64,000 nt of DNA from Cupriavidus taiwanensis (GTDB taxonomy: Bacteria > Pseudomonadota > Gammaproteobacteria > Burkholderiales > Burkholderiaceae), in assembly GCF_900250115.1 (NCBI RefSeq), contig NZ_LT984803.1, forward strand, positions 2,879,583-2,943,582, read 5' to 3'. The notes below the pieces were generated by a model. That model was not told where the DNA came from. It searched no databases and saw only the letters and a program-made list of their open reading frames with translations. The position numbers and the translations under genes were made by a program. This document shows positions 9,464-37,600 of this stretch, piece by piece. Numbering within the stretch: the stretch's first letter is position 1; each line of letters begins with the position of its first letter.

Positions 9464-10471
9464 TCAGGCGGGCATCGAGAAGCGCTCGATCCAGGCGGCG
9501 AGGCGGTCGGCGGCGAAGCTCTCGCTGCGCGGGGCGGCGCGGCAGACGATGGTGTCGCCGTCGCGCACGAACTTCAGCGCCCCACCGGCCTCTTCCAGCC
9601 ACAGCAGGCTGGCCAGCCAGGCGGCGTGCTGCGCCGACACCGCGGTGCCCACGGGCTGGGCCAGGAACTCGGCCAGAGCGGCCGGCTGGGTCCAGACCAC
9701 CGTATCGCCGTCGCGGCGCACCACGTCGCTGCCGAGCGCGTCGGCAATCACCACGGCGGCATCGGCCGCGCCCTTGCCGGCATTGGCGCTACGCAGCCCG
9801 GCCAGGAGCGTGCTGACGGCATGGCCGAAGCTGCCGCTGCGCTCGGCTTCGGCGCGCACCAGGTCGGCATAGTCCATGCGTTGCCAGTCCGGATCGGCGT
9901 TGCGGGCCCCCGCCAGGTCGACCGCGACAAGGTAGGTCTCCACCGGCTGGAAATGGCCGGGACCGATCAGGCTCGCGCACAGCGCGTGCAGCATGCCGAT
10001 GCGGGTCGCCACGGTCTGGGTCTGCAGCACCGCCAGCTTCTCGCGCACCAGCTGGTCGCGCTCCTTGCGCAGGCCGGACATTTCCAGCGCCTGCTTGAGC
10101 TCCATGCGCAGCGCGGTGATGTCCCACGGCTTCTTGATATAGCGGTGGATCTGCCCCTGGTTCACCGCCTCGACGGTCTGGTCGAGTTCCGAGTACGCGG
10201 TGGTCAGGATGCGCACGATATGCGGGTAGCGTTCGCGCGCATAGCGCAGCAGCTCGTTGCCATACTCGCCCGGCATGCGCTGGTCCGAGACCAGCACGGC
10301 GAGGCTGTCGGCGTGAGCGTCGAGCAGCGTCTTGCCCTCCTCCACCGAGCCGCCAGTCACCACCGGCGCCAGCGCGCCGATGGCCCGCTGGAAATATTTG
10401 ACGGCGGTCGCCTCGTCATCGACGAACAGAATCGCCGGGGGTGGTGCCTGGGTGGCAATCGGTTCGCTCAT
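9464..10471 (-). CDS. phcQ: PhcQ-like response regulator of a cell-density system
   Basis: This 335-residue protein has an N-terminal receiver domain (acidic pair D18/D19, phosphoacceptor D63 in LVSDQRMPGEYG, TT in RILTTAYS, lysine in YIKKPWD). A coiled linker and a roughly 190-residue C-terminal region without DNA-binding features follow. By order and neighbours it matches PhcQ, the last gene of the Ralstonia phcBSRQ operon, which there modulates release of PhcA from repression. It overlaps phcR by 4 bp (ATGA), implying translational coupling. The C-terminus contains LHALCASLIG and a possible degenerate ATPase fold, suggesting a dead histidine-kinase-like output; that is inference. A stand-alone regulator of other function is possible, but less likely given the operon. 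Confidence 0.8.
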   Translation of the reverse strand: MSEPIATQAPPPAILFVDDEATAVKYFQRAIGALAPVVTGGSVEEGKTLLDAHADSLAVLVSDQRMPGEYGNELLRYARERYPHIVRILTTAYSELDQTVEAVNQGQIHRYIKKPWDITALRMELKQALEMSGLRKERDQLVREKLAVLQTQTVATRIGMLHALCASLIGPGHFQPVETYLVAVDLAGARNADPDWQRMDYADLVRAEAERSGSFGHAVSTLLAGLRSANAGKGAADAAVVIADALGSDVVRRDGDTVVWTQPAALAEFLAQPVGTAVSAQHAAWLASLLWLEEAGGALKFVRDGDTIVCRAAPRSESFAADRLAAWIERFSMPA

Positions 10472-11607
10472 CGGTCACTCCTAATCATTCGATTCCTGAA
10501 ATTTGGAAAGTCCAGCGTCACTGTGGTCCCGGCACCGGGAGCGGAGGCGATCCGGATGCCGCCGCCGAAGGACTGCATGACGCGGTTGCAGAAAATCATG
10601 CCGAGGCCACTGCCGCCAGCACTGGCGTGGGTAGTGACCGGATCGACCAGCAGGCGTCCCATCACCTCCGGCGGGATGCCCGGGCCGTTGTCGCAGATGC
10701 GGATTTCCTGGTTGGGCTGGGTTGTCACCACGAAGCGCAGCGATGGCCGGTCCACGCCCGCCAGCGCGCGTAGCGCGTTGCTCATCACCGACGACAGTAC
10801 CAGCGCGACGCAGTTGGGCAGCGTCTGCACCGGGAAATCGCCCTGCATGTCGACCTCGACCCACTGGCGCTGCCCGCCGGTGAACGGATACGTATCGAGC
10901 AGCGACGTCACCAGCGCGCCCGCGCTGACCTCGGTGCCGGCGTCGGCCGCCGGCGCCTTGCTGACACCCGCGCTGTTGCGCACCGACTCCAGGAACGACG
11001 ACAGCACCGCCAGGCAATACTGCGCGTTGTCGTACATGGCGCCCGCGGCCTGCCCGATTTCTCCTTGCCGCTGCTCGCTGTACTCGGCCTGGACGCGGCT
11101 TTCGATGCCGCGCGCGAAGTTGGCGATCGCGGCCAGCGGCGTGTTCAGTTCATGCGCCAGGAACGCCAGGGTTTCGTCGATCGCCATCAGGCGGTGCTGG
11201 CGCAACGCGCGCTCCAGGTGGCGCTCGCCGGCCAGGTGCAGCACCTGGCGCACGTCGCTGACACTGAGCGGCTTTTCCAGGATGCGGAAGACCTCGCCGC
11301 TGTTGACCGTCTGCAACAGCATGTCCTTGTCGGCGTAGGCCGTCACCAGGATGCGCACGATCTGCGGATAGGCCTGCGCGACCTCGCGCAGCAGGTCGCC
11401 GCCATCGCGGCCGGGCATGCGGAAATCGGTGACCAGGATCGCGATCCGCCCGCCCTCGGCGCGCAGCATCGCCATCGCCTCGTCGGCGCCGGCGGCAAGC
11501 AGGACCTCATACTCGCTGCCGACCGCGCGCGCAAAGTACTTGCGCGCCATGTCCTCGTCATCGACGTAAAGGACCACGTTTGGCCGCGCTTGCTGGAGTT
11601 CGCCCAT
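10468..11607 (-). CDS. phcR: PhcR-like response regulator with histidine-kinase output domain
   Basis: The 379-residue protein begins with a receiver domain (D16/D17, phosphoacceptor D61 in LVTDFRMPGRDGG, lysine in ILEKPLS). It ends in a histidine-kinase module: H-box FLAHELNTPLAAI with H152, an N-box-like region (SSVMSNALRAL), and G-boxes ICDNGPGIP and GGSGLGM. A receiver in front of a kinase rather than a DNA-binding domain is the hallmark of Ralstonia PhcR, the partner phosphorylated by PhcS. The ATG at 11607 (MGELQQARPN) lies 5 bp after the phcS stop; the open frame extends 15 codons further into phcS but is not needed. It overlaps phcQ at ATGA. Confidence 0.85.
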   Translation of the reverse strand: MGELQQARPNVVLYVDDEDMARKYFARAVGSEYEVLLAAGADEAMAMLRAEGGRIAILVTDFRMPGRDGGDLLREVAQAYPQIVRILVTAYADKDMLLQTVNSGEVFRILEKPLSVSDVRQVLHLAGERHLERALRQHRLMAIDETLAFLAHELNTPLAAIANFARGIESRVQAEYSEQRQGEIGQAAGAMYDNAQYCLAVLSSFLESVRNSAGVSKAPAADAGTEVSAGALVTSLLDTYPFTGGQRQWVEVDMQGDFPVQTLPNCVALVLSSVMSNALRALAGVDRPSLRFVVTTQPNQEIRICDNGPGIPPEVMGRLLVDPVTTHASAGGSGLGMIFCNRVMQSFGGGIRIASAPGAGTTVTLDFPNFRNRMIRSDR

Positions 11608-11612
11608 GCGAC

Positions 11613-12944
11613 TTACTCCGCGCGAGGCAGGTCGAAGCTGAACGCGGCCCACTGGCCGAGCTCGCTCTCGGCAAACAGCTGGCCGCCGTGGCGCTCGATC
11701 ACGGCATAGCTGATCGAGAGCCCCAGGCCCAGGCCCTGCCCGACTTCACGGGTGGTGAAGAACGGCTCGAACACCCGCGCCAGGTGTTCCGCCGCGATGC
11801 CGGGGCCGTTGTCGCGCACGGTCACGTGCAAGCGGCCTTCGGTCCAGCGCACCGCGGTATGGATCGCGGGTTCGGTGGTGCCGGCCTTGCGCATGGCCAG
11901 CGCCGCGTTGGAAAACAGGTTGATCAGCACGCCGATGATGGCGGCCTCGTCGCCCAGCACCAGCGTGTCGGCGGGCAACTCGCGCGTCACCTTGACGCCG
12001 CGCAGCTCATGCGCGGTCAGGCGGATCGACGAATCCAGCGCCTTTTCGAACATGAACGGCGTGCCTTCCACCTCGGCGCCCGGCTTGCGGTAGGCGAAGG
12101 TCTTCAGGTCGGAAACGATATGCTGGATGCGCTGCATCCCCTGCTTGGCATCCACCAGGCATTCGGTCAGCGACTCGCTTTCCTTGGCCTGGGGTTCTTC
12201 CATCGCCACCTCGATCGCCATCAGGCAGAAGTTCACCGGATTGTTGACTTCATGCAGCAGACCCGCGGCCAGGGTACCGATCGCGGCCATCTTTTCCTGC
12301 TGCAGCATCTGGCCCTTGATATCGACCAGCTTGCGGTTGATGACCTCGAGTTCGGCGTTCTTCTCGGCCACCTCCGCCTTGAGGCGGAACAGCATGAAGC
12401 GCGCGCGCTCGTTGAAATAGGTGTAGACCGCGCTGGCCGCGGCGGCAAACAGCAGGAACAGCGAATTGACGATAAAGGTCCCGAGCGGCTCGATGCCGCC
12501 GGGATGAAACAGGCACGCCAGCACGTACAGCAGGTACGAAAGCACGCCGAATACCAGGTTCTGCCACAGGCCGAACGGCAGCGCGATGCCTGACGCGAAG
12601 ATGGCCAGGTTCAGTCCGACGTAGTACGGCGAATGCACGCCTTCAGTCTGCGAGATCATCCAGGCAATCATGATCTGCGGCAGCAGCAGCCAGGTCAGCG
12701 TCAGCCAGGGCGCGAAGCGGCGGCCGGCGGCGCTGTACAGGACCACCACGACCCCGGCGATCAGCATCGACACCACCACGCGCGCCACCGCGAAGGGAAA
12801 CTGCTGCTGCGGATACTGTCCGTAGTCGAGCCCGACGCCGAGCAGGACCAGCACGATCGCGGTGTAGGCGCCGCCGCGGCTGAAGGCCAGGCGGAAGTCG
12901 ACCAGTTCGGACTGGTAGCCGGCGTAGAGTTGGTTGGTGCTCAT
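11613..12944 (-). CDS. phcS: PhcS-like membrane sensor histidine kinase
   Basis: The 443-residue protein has about six hydrophobic helices in residues 25-175 and then a coiled linker (LKAEVAEKNAELEVINRKLV). The kinase core has H231 in AAGLLHEVNNPVNF, an N-box in GVLINLFSNAALAM, and G-boxes VRDNGPGIA and GLGLGLSISYAV. It should detect the fatty-acid-ester signal at the inner membrane and phosphorylate PhcR, as known in Ralstonia solanacearum. I chose the ATG at 12944 (MSTNQLYAGY), 22 bp after the phcB stop. A TTG at 12974 would extend the frame by 10 codons into phcB. The ligand specificity cannot be read from the sequence. Confidence 0.85.
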   Translation of the reverse strand: MSTNQLYAGYQSELVDFRLAFSRGGAYTAIVLVLLGVGLDYGQYPQQQFPFAVARVVVSMLIAGVVVVLYSAAGRRFAPWLTLTWLLLPQIMIAWMISQTEGVHSPYYVGLNLAIFASGIALPFGLWQNLVFGVLSYLLYVLACLFHPGGIEPLGTFIVNSLFLLFAAAASAVYTYFNERARFMLFRLKAEVAEKNAELEVINRKLVDIKGQMLQQEKMAAIGTLAAGLLHEVNNPVNFCLMAIEVAMEEPQAKESESLTECLVDAKQGMQRIQHIVSDLKTFAYRKPGAEVEGTPFMFEKALDSSIRLTAHELRGVKVTRELPADTLVLGDEAAIIGVLINLFSNAALAMRKAGTTEPAIHTAVRWTEGRLHVTVRDNGPGIAAEHLARVFEPFFTTREVGQGLGLGLSISYAVIERHGGQLFAESELGQWAAFSFDLPRAE

Positions 12945-12966
12945 GGCGTGGCCCGCGAGGACAGCC

Positions 12967-14358
12967 TCAGTCAATGGTGGCTTCCGCGAACACGTTGACC
13001 CCGGTGCTGTCGACGTAGACGCGGTGCGAATGCGAGTGTTCGGGCAGCAGTTGCGCCATGCCCGAATCGTCGCGATAGATCAGGTACCACTCGAGCAGGT
13101 GCTCCATGCCGAATTTCTCCGGATTGTCCGCATGGACGTTGGTCACCAGGATCTGGCCGCCAGGGCGCGAGCGCGAGGCGAAGTACGACAGCAGCCGGGC
13201 GCAGACCTTGTCCGACAGGTAGTCGAACAGGCCGGCACAGTAGACCGCGTCGAACTCGCGTGCGGCGGCATCGTCCGGCGAGATGCGACGCTTGAGCAGT
13301 TCATGCACCGACTGGTGCACCATCTCGACGGCAAACTTGTTGCCGGCGCTGTTGGCCGAGTGCTCGATCGACTTGCGCGTGTAGTCGAGCGTCTCTTCGC
13401 TGAAATCGACCAGCTGGAACGACAACAGCTCCGGGTTCGGGTATTCGCGCACGAAGCGCTGGATTTCGAAGGCGGGGCCGCAACCCACGTTGAGCACGCG
13501 GAACGGCCGCCCGGCGGCGCGCGCGCGCTCGGCCTGGCGCTTGAGGAAATCGATCAGCAGGTCGATGCGGTTGCGGTGCGCGGTCGCCACCGCCGCCTTC
13601 AGGAAGGCGGTATTGACGATCTGGAAATAGGTGGTCGGACCTTGTTGCGGATCCCCCAGGATCTGGTTCACCATTTCATAGTCGCCGGCATAGCCAAGCG
13701 GCTTGGTGAACGTGCGATAGACGAACGGCGCGCGCAGCAGCAACGGATGCAGCGCCGACTGCGCGTAGGTGCGGTGCACCGGTGCGATTTCGGCGTCCAC
13801 GCGCTGGGCTTCGCCCTCGAGCCAGTCCAGGTAGGTCTTGGTCTTGGCCATGATGGGCGTGGCCAGCTCGTAGAAGACGTCCTGGCGCAGCTTGCCTTCG
13901 GTCTTGGGCAGCGACTCGGTCAGGTCGACCTGCTCGACCCAGCGCGACACTTCGGACAGGAAGGCGCGCATCTCGTTGACCACGATCTGGTAGTCGCGCC
14001 GGATATTGAAGCGCGTGTCCCAATCCTGCACGAACAGCTCGGCTTCGCGCGCGACTGACTTGGGCTCGTTGTTGAGATCGGACAGTTCGCGCCACTCGTC
14101 GATCAGTGTCAGCGACACCACCGCGGTCAGGCCGGTGTTCACCAGGCTCATCACCACGGCCTTGCCGAGATAGGCATTCTTGGCGCCCATGCGGACGCTG
14201 AGCTCGCTCAGCACCTCGCTGACCTGCACGATCGAATACGGATTGTAGATTTCCATCACCAGAGACTTTCTCTGGAGATTGATGATCGTGCCCCGCACCT
14301 GCTCGCCCTGCGAGTTGCGGAAACTAACTACCGGATCGATTTGCGTTTTGGAGTACAC
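12967..14358 (-). CDS. phcB: PhcB-like SAM-dependent methyltransferase making the cell-density signal
   Basis: This 463-residue protein begins with a PilZ-like beta region (RGTIINLQRKSLVMEIYNPY) and ends in a class I methyltransferase domain with the SAM-binding motif RVLNVGCGPAFEI at about 287-299 and FDAVYCAGLFDYLSD. In Ralstonia, PhcB methylates a 3-hydroxy fatty acid to 3-hydroxypalmitic or 3-hydroxymyristic acid methyl ester, the Phc signal. The identical gene order with the sensor and both regulators downstream supports the call. The start is a GTG (MYSKTQIDP); the next in-frame ATG is 34 codons in and would cut the PilZ-like part. Which fatty acid is used here is unknown. Confidence 0.85.
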   Translation of the reverse strand: MYSKTQIDPVVSFRNSQGEQVRGTIINLQRKSLVMEIYNPYSIVQVSEVLSELSVRMGAKNAYLGKAVVMSLVNTGLTAVVSLTLIDEWRELSDLNNEPKSVAREAELFVQDWDTRFNIRRDYQIVVNEMRAFLSEVSRWVEQVDLTESLPKTEGKLRQDVFYELATPIMAKTKTYLDWLEGEAQRVDAEIAPVHRTYAQSALHPLLLRAPFVYRTFTKPLGYAGDYEMVNQILGDPQQGPTTYFQIVNTAFLKAAVATAHRNRIDLLIDFLKRQAERARAAGRPFRVLNVGCGPAFEIQRFVREYPNPELLSFQLVDFSEETLDYTRKSIEHSANSAGNKFAVEMVHQSVHELLKRRISPDDAAAREFDAVYCAGLFDYLSDKVCARLLSYFASRSRPGGQILVTNVHADNPEKFGMEHLLEWYLIYRDDSGMAQLLPEHSHSHRVYVDSTGVNVFAEATID

Positions 14359-24854: not shown

Positions 24855-25901
24855 ATGACCTTCAATCCCCACGACAGGAATCTGTCGGTCTTCCATCACC
24901 CGGTCCTGACTGTCCTGGTGGATGACAGCAAGTCCTTCATCGACAGCCTGGCGTTCCAGATGGATGCCGCGCGCGGGGTGATCACCTTCACCGACCCGCG
25001 CGAAGCGTTGCAATGGATCCGCGAAGCCTACGCCACCCGCTTCCCCGGCTTCCTGCCGGTGCGCGTCACCCATGACGACCTGACCTTCCTGACCGAGCGC
25101 CGCACGGTCCAGCTCGACATCGACCGCATCTACCGGCAGATCCACGACGTCAACCGATTCCTGCAGCCCGGCGTGGTGGTGGTCGACTATTCGATGCCGC
25201 AGATGGACGGCCTGGAGTTCTGCCAGGCGCTGCAGGACCTGCCGTGCAAGACCATTCTCCTGACCGGCACCGCCGATGAAAGCATCGCGGTGCAGGGCTT
25301 CAACCACGGGCTGATCGACCGCTATGTGAAAAAGCACGACAGCAATATGGTGGAGCGCCTGGACCAGGAAATCGAAGCCATGCAGCAGGCCTACTTCGCC
25401 ACGCTGTCGCGCACGCTGCGCGAGCTGCTGACGCGGCATTCGTTCTCGTTCCTGTCCGATCCCGCCATGACCGAGCGCGTGCGCCAGCTGACCGCGCGCT
25501 ACGGCTTCGTCGAGTACTACCTGTACCCCAATCCCGCCGGCATCCTGCTGCTGACCGCGCAGGGCCACGCCACGCTGATGGTGATCGAGACCCGCGCCGG
25601 ACTGATGACGCAGGTGGAGTCGGCCGAGGCCTACGACGCCCCCGCCGCGCTGATCGAAGGCCTGCGCGAAGGCCGGCTGGTGCCGTTCTTCTGGCCCGGC
25701 AACGGCATGTACACGCCGGCCTGCGTCGATTGGGAACAATACTGCCTGCCGGCCGAGCGCTGCGACGGCAGGGAAGAATTCTTCTACGCGCTGTTCGACC
25801 TGCCGCGCCACCTGCTGCAGGAGCCGGTGGTCAGCCTGCAGAGCTTCCTGGCGGATTTCAGCCGAAACCCGGAAGCCTTGACGGGGCGCAAGCGCCCCTG
25901 A
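24855..25901 (+). CDS. Orphan response regulator with an enlarged receiver domain
   Basis: This 348-residue protein starts with a receiver-like domain: acidic pair D23/D24 in TVLVDDSKSF, phosphoacceptor D111 in VVVVDYSMPQMDG, T137 in ILLTGTAD and a lysine in RYVKKHDS. In ordinary receivers the phosphoacceptor lies near residue 55; here about 50 extra residues (about 60-105, including RTVQLDIDRIYRQIHDVNRF) sit between the second helix and the third strand. The C-terminal 180 residues match no DNA-binding or enzymatic domain that I recognise. No kinase gene adjoins it. It has its own promoter and a start at ATG 24855; the short frame upstream is not used. Confidence 0.85.
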   Translation: MTFNPHDRNLSVFHHPVLTVLVDDSKSFIDSLAFQMDAARGVITFTDPREALQWIREAYATRFPGFLPVRVTHDDLTFLTERRTVQLDIDRIYRQIHDVNRFLQPGVVVVDYSMPQMDGLEFCQALQDLPCKTILLTGTADESIAVQGFNHGLIDRYVKKHDSNMVERLDQEIEAMQQAYFATLSRTLRELLTRHSFSFLSDPAMTERVRQLTARYGFVEYYLYPNPAGILLLTAQGHATLMVIETRAGLMTQVESAEAYDAPAALIEGLREGRLVPFFWPGNGMYTPACVDWEQYCLPAERCDGREEFFYALFDLPRHLLQEPVVSLQSFLADFSRNPEALTGRKRP

Positions 25902-36079: not shown

Positions 36080-36511
36080 ATGCCGAGTCCGGCGGACCTC
36101 AAGAATATCGGCCTGAAGGCGACCGTGCCCAGGCTGAAGATTCTTGAAATTTTTCAGACCAGCGAACAGCGTCACCTGAGCGCGGAAGACGTCTACCGCA
36201 TCCTGCTCAACGAGCATATGGATATCGGCCTGGCCACCGTCTACCGCGTGCTGACCCAGTTCGAGCAAGCCGGCCTGCTGTCACGCAACAACTTCGAGTC
36301 CGGCAAGGCGATCTTCGAGCTCAACGAAGGCAAGCACCACGATCACCTGGTGTGCCTGGACTGCGGCCGGGTCGAGGAATTCTTCGATTCCGAGATCGAG
36401 CAGCGCCAGCAAAGCATTGCGCGCGAGCGCGGCTTCACCCTGCAGGAACATGCGTTGTCGCTGTACGGCAACTGCACCAAAACAAACTGTCCCCACAGAC
36501 CTAAACGATAA
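36080..36511 (+). CDS. fur: Ferric uptake regulator Fur
   Basis: Fur is the iron-responsive repressor. The 143-residue protein has the winged helix ([51 protein letters not shown]) and the metal sites [16 protein letters not shown] and the C-terminal cysteines in [11 protein letters not shown]. An AGGGAG site precedes the ATG at 36080. It is divergent from bamE, the standard Burkholderiales arrangement, and its transcript ends at the perfect palindromic terminator shared with phcA. Confidence 0.97.
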
Positions 36512-36604: not shown

Positions 36605-37600
36605 TCAGCGCGCCTGCAGGTCCTGCAGGTCCTGCTCGCTCACCGCCCGTGCCGTGCGTGCCGGCGGCAGGCCGACGAACTCGCCCACCACCTGGCGGAA
36701 CAGGCCGCGCGCCCACACCAGCATCGGGTGAGTGTTGCGGCTGCGATGCCAGAACATGTTCAGGCCGAGCGTGGTGTTCAGCTCTGCCGGCAGCGGGAAG
36801 GCCTTCAAACCATAGGTTTCGCAGGCCATGTCCTTGGTCAGCGCATTGACGGTGAAGATCATGTCGGTCTGCGAGGCCAGTTCTGCCTGGGCCCGCCACG
36901 AATGTACCGTCAGTGAGGCATTGCGCTTGAGGCCGCGCTGCTGCAGTGCGTAGTCAAGCGGAATCAGCGAAGGCGCCGGGCGTCCCGAGCCACCGGAGTG
37001 CGCCATGAAGATATGGCCGCAGTCCAGGTATTGCTCCAGCGTGCAGTGGCCCTTCAGCACCGGATGGTCCTTGCGCGCGCACACCCACAGGTTCAGCGAC
37101 GTCACCATTTCCTCGACGATTTCCGGATGGCGGGTCGGGAACGGCGAGAATGCCAGGTCGAGTTCATTGGCGCGCATCGAGGCCACGTCGGTTTCCCACG
37201 AATGGGACTCGACCAGCTTGATATGCAGGTCCGGCGCCAGCGCCTTGATGCGCAGCACGAAACGGTTGAACACCGTATCGCCCAGTTCCGCGGCAAAGCC
37301 GATGCTGAGCGTGCCGGTGGCGGTGGCCGGATCGAAGTTGTCCGCGTCGCCCTCGTTGATCGACGACCACAGGTCCAGCATGTCGCGGACCTTGGGCCCC
37401 AGCTCGAGCGCGCGCGGTGTCGGCGTCAGCCCGTGCGGGACGCGGATAAAGAGTGGATCGTCAAAGATTTCGCGCAGCCTGCCCAGCGAATGCGAGACCG
37501 CCGGCGCGGTCATGTGCATCTTCTCAGCCACGTAGGTGGCATTACGCTTGCTCAGCAGCTCGGTGAAGATCACTAGAAGCTTTGTGTCTACGTTCACCAT
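36605..37600 (-). CDS. phcA: LysR-type cell-density master regulator PhcA
   Basis: The 331-residue protein has the LysR helix-turn-helix (MVNVDTKLLVIFTELLSKRN, YVAEKMHMTAPAVSHSLGRL) and an effector-binding domain. I recognise the N-terminus as near-identical to Ralstonia PhcA, the regulator that switches on density-dependent genes when PhcS/PhcR sense the methyl-ester signal. The phcB-S-R-Q operon lies about 22 kb away in this window, which supports the call. The ATG at 37600 gives the standard PhcA start; the frame extends upstream only into AT-rich leader. It ends in a terminator shared with fur and is preceded by an AT-rich 372-bp leader region. Confidence 0.93.
   Translation of the reverse strand: MVNVDTKLLVIFTELLSKRNATYVAEKMHMTAPAVSHSLGRLREIFDDPLFIRVPHGLTPTPRALELGPKVRDMLDLWSSINEGDADNFDPATATGTLSIGFAAELGDTVFNRFVLRIKALAPDLHIKLVESHSWETDVASMRANELDLAFSPFPTRHPEIVEEMVTSLNLWVCARKDHPVLKGHCTLEQYLDCGHIFMAHSGGSGRPAPSLIPLDYALQQRGLKRNASLTVHSWRAQAELASQTDMIFTVNALTKDMACETYGLKAFPLPAELNTTLGLNMFWHRSRNTHPMLVWARGLFRQVVGEFVGLPPARTARAVSEQDLQDLQAR

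What the first reader, a model, noticed from the sequence alone, without database searches (positions are those of the whole stretch)
9464..14358. phcBSRQ-type operon of a fatty-acid-ester quorum-sensing system
Seen: four leftward genes, methyltransferase with PilZ-like N-terminus, six-helix histidine kinase, receiver-plus-kinase protein and a second receiver protein, with the last pair overlapping at ATGA. Known: this is the composition and order of the Ralstonia solanacearum phcBSRQ operon, which makes and senses 3-hydroxy fatty acid methyl esters. To my knowledge a functional Phc homologue has been reported in Ralstonia eutropha (Cupriavidus). Inference: this organism has its own version, whose signal chain length is unknown.
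Basis: partly seen in the sequence, partly recalled or inferred. Interest (0 to 1): 0.7.

Follow-up and report, generated by a model that had tools for sequence, protein, structure and literature searches.

The report
Phc quorum-sensing operon, class I allele
The four genes are the Cupriavidus version of a known fatty-acid-ester quorum-sensing system; comparing relatives shows that the signal-making and signal-sensing parts change together as a block that comes in at least three types, as if neighbouring strains spoke different dialects.

Summary
Window 9464-14358 (-) holds phcB, phcS, phcR and phcQ in the R. solanacearum order. The genome is a Cupriavidus, and a phcA candidate lies beside fur 22 kb away. 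PhcB is 70% and 68% identical to two proteins named PhcB of R. pseudosolanacearum. Phc in Cupriavidus is already in print, so the operon itself is not new.

What I did not find in print is its allele structure. All 60 Cupriavidus genomes searched carry phcB: 47 full-length at 84-100% identity to the window (class I), 8 at 74-76% (II), 2 at 69-70% (III), 3 in pieces. In the closest pairs (flanks 94-98% identical) divergence peaks in PhcB from about residue 45-100 to its end and in the six-helix sensor of PhcS (1 to ~190). Between classes I and II the PhcS kinase, PhcR, PhcQ and neighbours have 1 class-specific residue, PhcB and the sensor 82. Class II is scattered on the flank tree and one clade on the phcB-S-R tree. 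Two R. pseudosolanacearum PhcS show the same sensor/kinase break; in that complex PhcB/PhcS groups follow signal type (C14 or C16 ester). I infer signal types in Cupriavidus too; chemistry is untested.

The parts
12967..14358 (-). phcB, SAM-dependent methyltransferase, predicted synthase of a 3-hydroxy fatty acid methyl ester; class I allele
   Evidence: R22, N290, G292, G294, D318 kept in 46 of 46 Cupriavidus rows
11613..12944 (-). phcS, six-helix sensor histidine kinase (443 aa, H231)
   Evidence: the histidine kept in 46 of 46 rows
10468..11607 (-). phcR, receiver plus histidine kinase (379 aa)
   Evidence: receiver Asp and H-box His kept in 46 of 46 rows
9464..10471 (-). phcQ, receiver protein without a recognised output domain (335 aa), overlaps phcR by ATGA
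   Evidence: receiver Asp kept in 45 of 46 rows, one row gapped
12375..14133 (-). block that differs between allele classes: PhcB residues ~76-463 plus PhcS residues 1-~190; the 5' edge varies with the pair (PhcB ~45-100)
   Evidence: DNA profiles, class-specific residues, trees, linkage
36605..37600 (-). phcA candidate (LysR family, 331 aa from the ATG at 37600)
   Evidence: three listed homologues carry the name 'LysR family transcriptional regulator of virulence genes'; not compared directly with a protein named PhcA
36080..36511 (+). fur, neighbour of the phcA candidate
   Evidence: ORF; PF01475 at 159 bits
24864..25892 (+). phcX/lqsR orthologue: 67% to the ORF that precedes phcB in L048 (R. 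pickettii), taken as phcX by its place

Best explanation
This is a Phc quorum-sensing operon of Cupriavidus. PhcB methylates a 3-hydroxy fatty acid to a diffusible methyl ester (inferred from orthology). The six-helix part of PhcS senses the ester and drives autophosphorylation at H231, the counterpart of H230 reported in R. pseudosolanacearum. The phosphoryl group passes to the receivers of PhcR and PhcQ, and PhcA activity rises with density (inferred). The signal-making part of PhcB and the sensing part of PhcS form one contiguous block of about 1.76 kb whose versions vary together and are replaced in otherwise near-identical loci (shown by comparison). Cupriavidus carries at least three versions. 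This genome has class I, 98% identical in PhcB to G055, whose first contig is 3,416,911 bases; I recall that as chromosome 1 of C. taiwanensis LMG 19424. The classes are most likely signal types (inferred). For class I my guess is methyl 3-hydroxymyristate (C14), recalled for C. taiwanensis from an abstract I could not check. The confidence given is for the Phc operon; for the signal-type part I hold about 0.6.
For: Architecture and orthology; phcA candidate near fur. Discrete classes: 60 of 60 genomes have PhcB; 47 full-length at 84-100%, 8 at 74-76%, 2 at 69-70%, 3 in pieces of 83-95%. Block: window vs L084, flank DNA 97.3%, PhcB 1-75 97.3%, PhcB 76-463 70.2%, PhcS sensor 59.6%. L098 vs L044: flank 94.8%, sensor 59.6%, kinase 94.5%, PhcR 94.7%. 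Residues that never overlap between classes I (36 rows) and II (8), of variable columns: PhcB 76-463 42/183, sensor 40/125, kinase 0/83, PhcR 1/199, PhcQ 0/179, SecF 0/75, YceI 0/103; sensor vs kinase p = 8e-11. Class II needs 7 changes on the flank tree, 1 on the phcB-S-R tree; held as one clade on the flank tree p-AU 3e-91. PhcB-C and sensor identity correlate at 0.96 (partial 0.89) over 89 rows; all 87 pairs with kinase >= 90% and sensor <= 77% have PhcB-C 65-71%. Precedent: P0251 and P0252, both named PhcS of R. pseudosolanacearum, sensor 73.5%, kinase 97.6%; in that complex PhcB/PhcS group by signal type, PhcR/PhcQ by phylotype (passages of PMC8578825).
Against: No signal molecule was measured. 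In the C. taiwanensis-like class II strains divergence runs on through the PhcS kinase (88.9%) and PhcR (80%), and holding the window's species group together is rejected there too, so the replaced tract is not always the bare block. On phcR, phcQ and kinase segments class II as one clade is rejected (kinase only at p = 0.036), and on the separate phcB and sensor segments its support is only 74-88. Class III (2 rows) against II (8) also shows private residues outside the block: kinase 17/66, PhcR 35/158, PhcQ 33/148; and III against I has 8/16 in PhcB 1-75. Control clades inside class I have up to 12/84 in the sensor and 15/77 in the kinase (C. gilardii). Seven pairs break the linkage rule mildly (PhcB-C 85-86%, sensor 71-75%). 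A C. metallidurans PhcB (P0030) is 86%, i.e. class I, yet extraction of CH34 gave no 3-OH PAME. In R. pseudosolanacearum OE1-1, phcS deletion alone has minor effects and VsrA also senses (passages), so PhcS need not be the sole sensor.
Confidence: 0.85

Rival explanations
1. The block is a fast-diverging stretch (membrane sensor and substrate-binding region under weak constraint); the classes carry no difference in signal.
For: The sensor is the more variable part of PhcS in general: pairs with kinase 70-80% have a median sensor identity of 49%. Close class II pairs are themselves more diverged in the block than class I pairs at like flank distance (6.9-7.9% at 2.6-3.6% flank, against 3.8-4.4% at 3.0-3.8%).
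Against: At fixed kinase identity the sensor is two-peaked (kinase 95-99%: 5th percentile 58, 25th percentile 92; duplicates included). No full-length PhcB lies between 76 and 84%. One clade for the block against seven changes on flanks, and linkage of PhcB-C with the sensor, fit replacement better than drift.
Confidence: 0.2
2. Diversity in phcB and phcS of C. taiwanensis reflects positive selection and rewiring on becoming a legume symbiont (Clerissi et al. 2018, PMC5995829).
For: Passages report excess changes in phcBQRS on the branch to C. taiwanensis, positive selection on phcB and phcS, and lower in planta fitness of a phcA mutant. The selection test was confined to genes without a PHI recombination signal, so phcB and phcS apparently showed none in that strain set.
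Against: The dimorphism is genus-wide, with class II also in L045 (C. basilensis), L044 (C. yeoncheonensis) and L047 (C. lacunae), and similar breaks occur in Ralstonia. UYPR2.512, one of that paper's other symbiont lineages, is class II (L046). Proteins named C. taiwanensis fall in both classes (P0271, P0297 class I; P0296 class II). I did not re-run that paper's tests.
Confidence: 0.2
3. The cluster is a Phc-like relic whose PhcB no longer makes a signal here.
For: Three of 60 genomes have phcB in pieces and one has a stop inside the frame.
Against: The window's frames are intact and catalytic residues kept; phcB is present in 60 of 60 genomes.
Confidence: 0.05

Closest known systems
[quoted passage not shown]
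   Same: Gene order and domains; PhcB 70/68%; two PhcS types there show the same sensor/kinase break.
   Different: phcX/lqsR is 10.5 kb away here, not adjacent. PhcS kinase 72% to P0252. Signal unmeasured here.
Phc of Cupriavidus metallidurans CH34 and C. necator JMP134
   Same: phcBSRQ and phcA present in both (passages); phcA beside fur in CH34.
   Different: 3-OH PAME itself was not recovered from CH34. No allele classes in the passages seen.
Phc of Cupriavidus taiwanensis (Wakimoto et al. 2020, not held; cited)
   Same: PhcS 98% to P0271 and P0297 named C. taiwanensis.
   Different: P0296, also named C. taiwanensis, is class II: sensor 59.5%, kinase 89.3% to the window.
agr of Staphylococcus aureus (works like, not kin)
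   Same: Signal-making part and receptor sensor vary together between specificity groups (recalled). PMC6580516 passages draw the parallel between RSSC phcBRS and agr.
   Different: Peptide signal, unrelated proteins.

Membership tests
Phc quorum-sensing system (phcBSRQ + phcA) | Four genes in the order phcB-S-R-Q on one strand with the defining domains | tested here: met
Phc quorum-sensing system (phcBSRQ + phcA) | Orthology to named PhcB and PhcS | tested here: met
   PhcB 70/68% to P0066/P0086 named PhcB; PhcS 98% to P0271/P0297, given name 'SENSOR HISTIDINE KINASE, repressor of PhcA', and kinase 72%, sensor 56% to P0252 named PhcS
Phc quorum-sensing system (phcBSRQ + phcA) | PhcA orthologue in the genome | tested here: met
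   LysR gene at 36605-37600 beside fur, the place of phcA in CH34; 85-99% matches in 14 of 14 genomes searched, one of them partial. Not compared with a protein named PhcA: none of the 120 listed was so named
Phc quorum-sensing system (phcBSRQ + phcA) | Phosphorylatable His in PhcS (H230 in R. pseudosolanacearum) and receiver Asp in PhcR and PhcQ | tested here: met
   (passages)
Phc quorum-sensing system (phcBSRQ + phcA) | phcB-dependent production of a 3-hydroxy fatty acid methyl ester | not testable with these tools
   needs GC-MS or LC-MS
Phc quorum-sensing system (phcBSRQ + phcA) | Density-dependent control of PhcA targets | not testable with these tools
   needs mutants and reporters
   no PilZ family among hits at E <= 5; six strands at low confidence; fold comparison covered mainly residues 212-463

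The most novel reading that the evidence does not exclude
PhcB(~76-463) plus PhcS(1-~190) is a portable signal-specificity cassette. Cupriavidus strains near-identical elsewhere are split into at least three dialects that do not understand each other. The dialects persist across species (class II in the basilensis, pinatubonensis/yeoncheonensis and necator-taiwanensis groups) and are shared between genera (class I with Paraburkholderia, class III with P. caledonica and kin), presumably under frequency-dependent selection as in agr. Published selection signals at phcB/phcS of C. taiwanensis would then be allele replacement.
Probability: 0.5. Interest if true: 0.7.

Novelty: new member of a known kind. 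Interest (0 to 1): 0.5.

Why it matters
The operon alone adds one more Cupriavidus Phc system. The block pattern turns 'chain length unknown' into a test with predictions: strains such as those behind the window and L084 are 97% identical around the locus but should make and hear different esters. It may bear on why CH34 gave no 3-OH PAME, it offers an alternative reading of reported selection on phcB/phcS in a legume symbiont, and it marks where specificity probably resides (the six-helix part of PhcS and the larger part of PhcB).

Tried and rejected
Paralogues: one PhcB match in 57 of 60 genomes and 2-4 fragments in the other three. In this genome the 30 further PhcS matches at E <= 1e-5 align only from residue 197 on, so no second PhcS sensor was seen. 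The classes therefore look like alleles at one locus.

Chain length from sequence: given up. Two types of RSSC PhcB and of PhcS are in the data, but I had no labels tying them to C14 or C16, nor which PhcB goes with which PhcS.

Circularity and tests: the classes were defined on PhcB identity, so PhcB counts are partly circular; the PhcS sensor/kinase contrast and the linkage are less so. The species group in the AU tests was named after the flank tree was seen. The trees are quick trees.

Rows dropped: one search used 41 of 46 rows (L003, L006, L022, L038, L024 left out for low or doubtful flank coverage). Ten duplicate loci were left out. Searches used 45 Cupriavidus loci plus the window (SecF in fewer: 33 class I rows). 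One search used 88 loci plus the window; one search used 98 of 100 loci, 120 proteins and the window, duplicates included. Alignment A1 took 59 of 120 listed proteins, A2 53 of 120.

Print: the ten searches gave listings; in those and in the passages opened I saw no report of allele classes in Cupriavidus. The library is open-access only; Kai 2015 and Wakimoto 2020 were not seen.
Full report
What is there. The four leftward genes exist as described with these likely starts: phcB GTG at 14358, phcS ATG at 12944, phcR ATG at 11607, phcQ ATG at 10471 overlapping phcR by ATGA. Domains are as expected; PhcQ shows only a receiver, and the PhcS model has six long helices before the kinase. Terminator-like stems lie just beyond phcQ (9423-9400) and upstream of phcB (14672-14651), but the scan found no more than shuffles give. 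The window lies in a 7.01-Mb genome of three contigs. Its nearest rows on the flank tree are L084, L042, L001 (C. neocaledonicus), L087 and L093.

Membership. PhcB is 70% and 68% identical to two proteins named PhcB of R. pseudosolanacearum. PhcS is 98% identical to two C. taiwanensis proteins whose given name is 'SENSOR HISTIDINE KINASE, repressor of PhcA'. A LysR gene at 36605-37600 lies beside fur, the place of phcA in C. metallidurans (passages). It has homologues named 'LysR family transcriptional regulator of virulence genes', though none of the 120 listed is named PhcA. A phcX/lqsR orthologue lies at 24864-25892, in line with the report that in Cupriavidus this gene is near the phc genes (passages). 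Phc in Cupriavidus is in print: JMP134, CH34 (3-OH PAME itself not recovered), C. taiwanensis. Across the family the gene is patchy: 45 of 200 genomes, 6 of 25 genera, one of the 45 a weak partial match.

Allele classes. All 60 Cupriavidus genomes searched hold PhcB: 47 full-length at 84-100% identity to the window (one with a stop inside the frame), 8 at 74-76%, 2 at 69-70%, and 3 in pieces (83-95%). I call the first three groups classes I, II and III; the window is class I.

Where the classes differ. Projected DNA comparison shows a block of low identity between stretches of normal identity. Window against L084: flanks 97.3%, falling to 68-74% around the phcB/phcS junction. By protein: PhcB 1-75 97.3%, PhcB 76-463 70.2%, PhcS sensor 59.6%, kinase 88.9%, PhcR 80.3%, PhcQ 91.0%, SecF 99.1%. 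The cleanest pairs are L098/L044 (I/II: sensor 59.6%, kinase 94.5%, PhcR 94.7%) and L089/L026 (III/I: sensor 49.7%, kinase 98.7%, PhcR 98.4%). For each of the ten class II/III loci compared with its nearest class I locus by flanks (85-98% identical), the sensor (63-71%) and PhcB 76-463 (72-76%) are the two lowest segments; in L088 phcR (77%) comes close. The 5' edge lies between PhcB codons about 45 and 100, the 3' edge near PhcS codon 190 in the clean pairs; in the C. taiwanensis-like class II strains divergence extends into phcR.

Class-specific residues. Columns in which classes I (36 rows) and II (8 rows) share no residue, of variable columns: PhcB 1-75 0/14, PhcB 76-463 42/183, PhcS 1-200 (453-residue numbering, i.e. 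1-190 from the ATG) 40/125, PhcS 201-453 0/83, PhcR 1/199, PhcQ 0/179, SecF 0/75, YceI 0/103. Sensor against kinase p = 8e-11; the PhcB N-terminal contrast is weak, p = 0.04. Class III (2 rows) against I gives PhcB 1-75 8/16, PhcB 76-463 90/175, sensor 71/130, kinase 1/82, PhcR 0/199, PhcQ 1/180; class III against II, both small, also differs outside the block (kinase 17/66, PhcR 35/158, PhcQ 33/148). The same count for five clades inside class I gave 0-7 in PhcB 76-463, 1-12 in the sensor, 0-15 in the kinase and 1-23 in PhcR, so ordinary clades spread their private residues over all genes.

Trees. On 7.6 kb of flanking genes (41 rows) class II needs 7 changes, no fewer than shuffled labels (mean 7.5; as low in 202 of 500); starred branches force at least 6. 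On 10480-14150 it needs 1, support 100. Holding class II together on the flank tree is rejected (p-AU 3e-91). Holding the window's species group together, with its class II members, is rejected for both phcB segments, the PhcS sensor, the PhcS kinase and phcR, but not for phcQ (p 0.59). Class II as one clade is rejected on phcQ, phcR and, at p = 0.036, the kinase; on the phcB and sensor segments it is found with support 74-88. In the PhcB protein tree the class I clade also holds 13 Paraburkholderia/Burkholderia loci (within L025-L040), and class III groups with P. caledonica, P. bannensis and P. ribeironis.

How old. At middle distances the block in class II diverges much as in class I: 10.4-10.9% flank with 15.0-17.5% block in II, 10.7% with 15.7% in I. 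It is steeper in II for close pairs (2.6-3.6% with 6.9-7.9%, against 3.0-3.8% with 3.8-4.4% in I) and for pairs of the basilensis-like L045 or L088 with the other six (12.7-14.1% with 23.5-29.0%, against 12.8-13.2% with 17.5-19.7% in I). Long maintenance in several species groups is therefore plausible but not shown; repeated replacement fits too.

Linkage and generality. Over 89 rows PhcB 90-463 identity correlates with sensor identity at 0.96 (partial 0.89 given kinase, PhcB N-terminus, PhcR and PhcQ; for PhcB-C with the kinase the partial value is 0.37). All 87 pairs with kinase at least 90% and sensor at most 77% have PhcB-C 65-71%; all 475 pairs with kinase at least 90% and sensor at least 85% have PhcB-C at least 83%; seven pairs have PhcB-C at least 85% with sensor at most 75%. 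Among 219 PhcS sequences, duplicates included, 259 pairs have kinase at least 92% with sensor at most 77%, e.g. P0280/L083 99.6%/58.0% and P0244/L061 (Ralstonia) 97.5%/48.1%. P0251 and P0252, both named PhcS of R. pseudosolanacearum, have sensor 73.5% and kinase 97.6%; PhcB P0066 and P0086 have 98.7% over 1-75 and 81.9% over 76-463. In that complex PhcB/PhcS are reported to group by signal type, PhcR, PhcQ and PhcA by phylotype (passages citing Kai 2015, which I have not seen), and phcB/phcS show balancing-selection signals (passages). This precedent is why I read the Cupriavidus classes as signal types.

How it most likely works. Shown here: gene content, conserved catalytic residues (46 of 46 rows; PhcQ Asp 45 of 46), block replacement. 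From literature on R. pseudosolanacearum: H230 autophosphorylation of PhcS on sensing 3-OH MAME, with VsrA also sensing and minor effects of phcS deletion alone (passages). PhcQ's role is reported as signal production rather than transduction (passages) and as binding and stabilising PhcA (abstract only). Inferred: the same relay here, with the ester type set by the block. C14 for class I rests on a recalled abstract and is a guess.

A published result seen differently. Clerissi et al. (PMC5995829, passages) report excess changes of phcBQRS on the branch to C. taiwanensis and positive selection on phcB and phcS, read as rewiring during symbiosis. Here proteins named C. taiwanensis fall in both classes and UYPR2.512 is class II (L046), so allele replacement is a rival cause. 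Against it, that paper confined its selection test to genes without a PHI recombination signal. I did not re-run its tests.

Scores. The operon is ordinary for the genus; the linked block and its classes are the part worth following. Interest 0.5.

Noticed in passing
L057, about 10754-11334: P. caledonica phcR matches the window PhcR only at residues 1-140 and 302-377, so the middle with the H-box appears missing, while ORFs for phcB, phcS and phcQ are there.
   Followed up: partly
L053, 10803-11171: In this Burkholderiales MAG the phcR position matches PhcR only over the receiver (38%), so a shorter PhcR may stand there.
   Followed up: no
G043, G047, G058: Three of 60 Cupriavidus genomes have phcB in two or more pieces; real change or assembly error not told apart.
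   Followed up: no
G050:C1:871583-872305: The phcA candidate of this class II genome matches only residues 1-241 of 333, in an open frame of 267; possibly a natural phcA change.
   Followed up: no
L057 phcQ: P. caledonica PhcQ is 79% to the window, against 62-68% in the class I Paraburkholderia loci, hinting at a separate transfer.
   Followed up: no
L025-L040: Thirteen Paraburkholderia/Burkholderia loci hold relatives of all four phc genes, whereas PMC5995829 found the system intact only in Cupriavidus and Ralstonia; phcA was not sought there.
   Followed up: no
[not shown]
   Followed up: no
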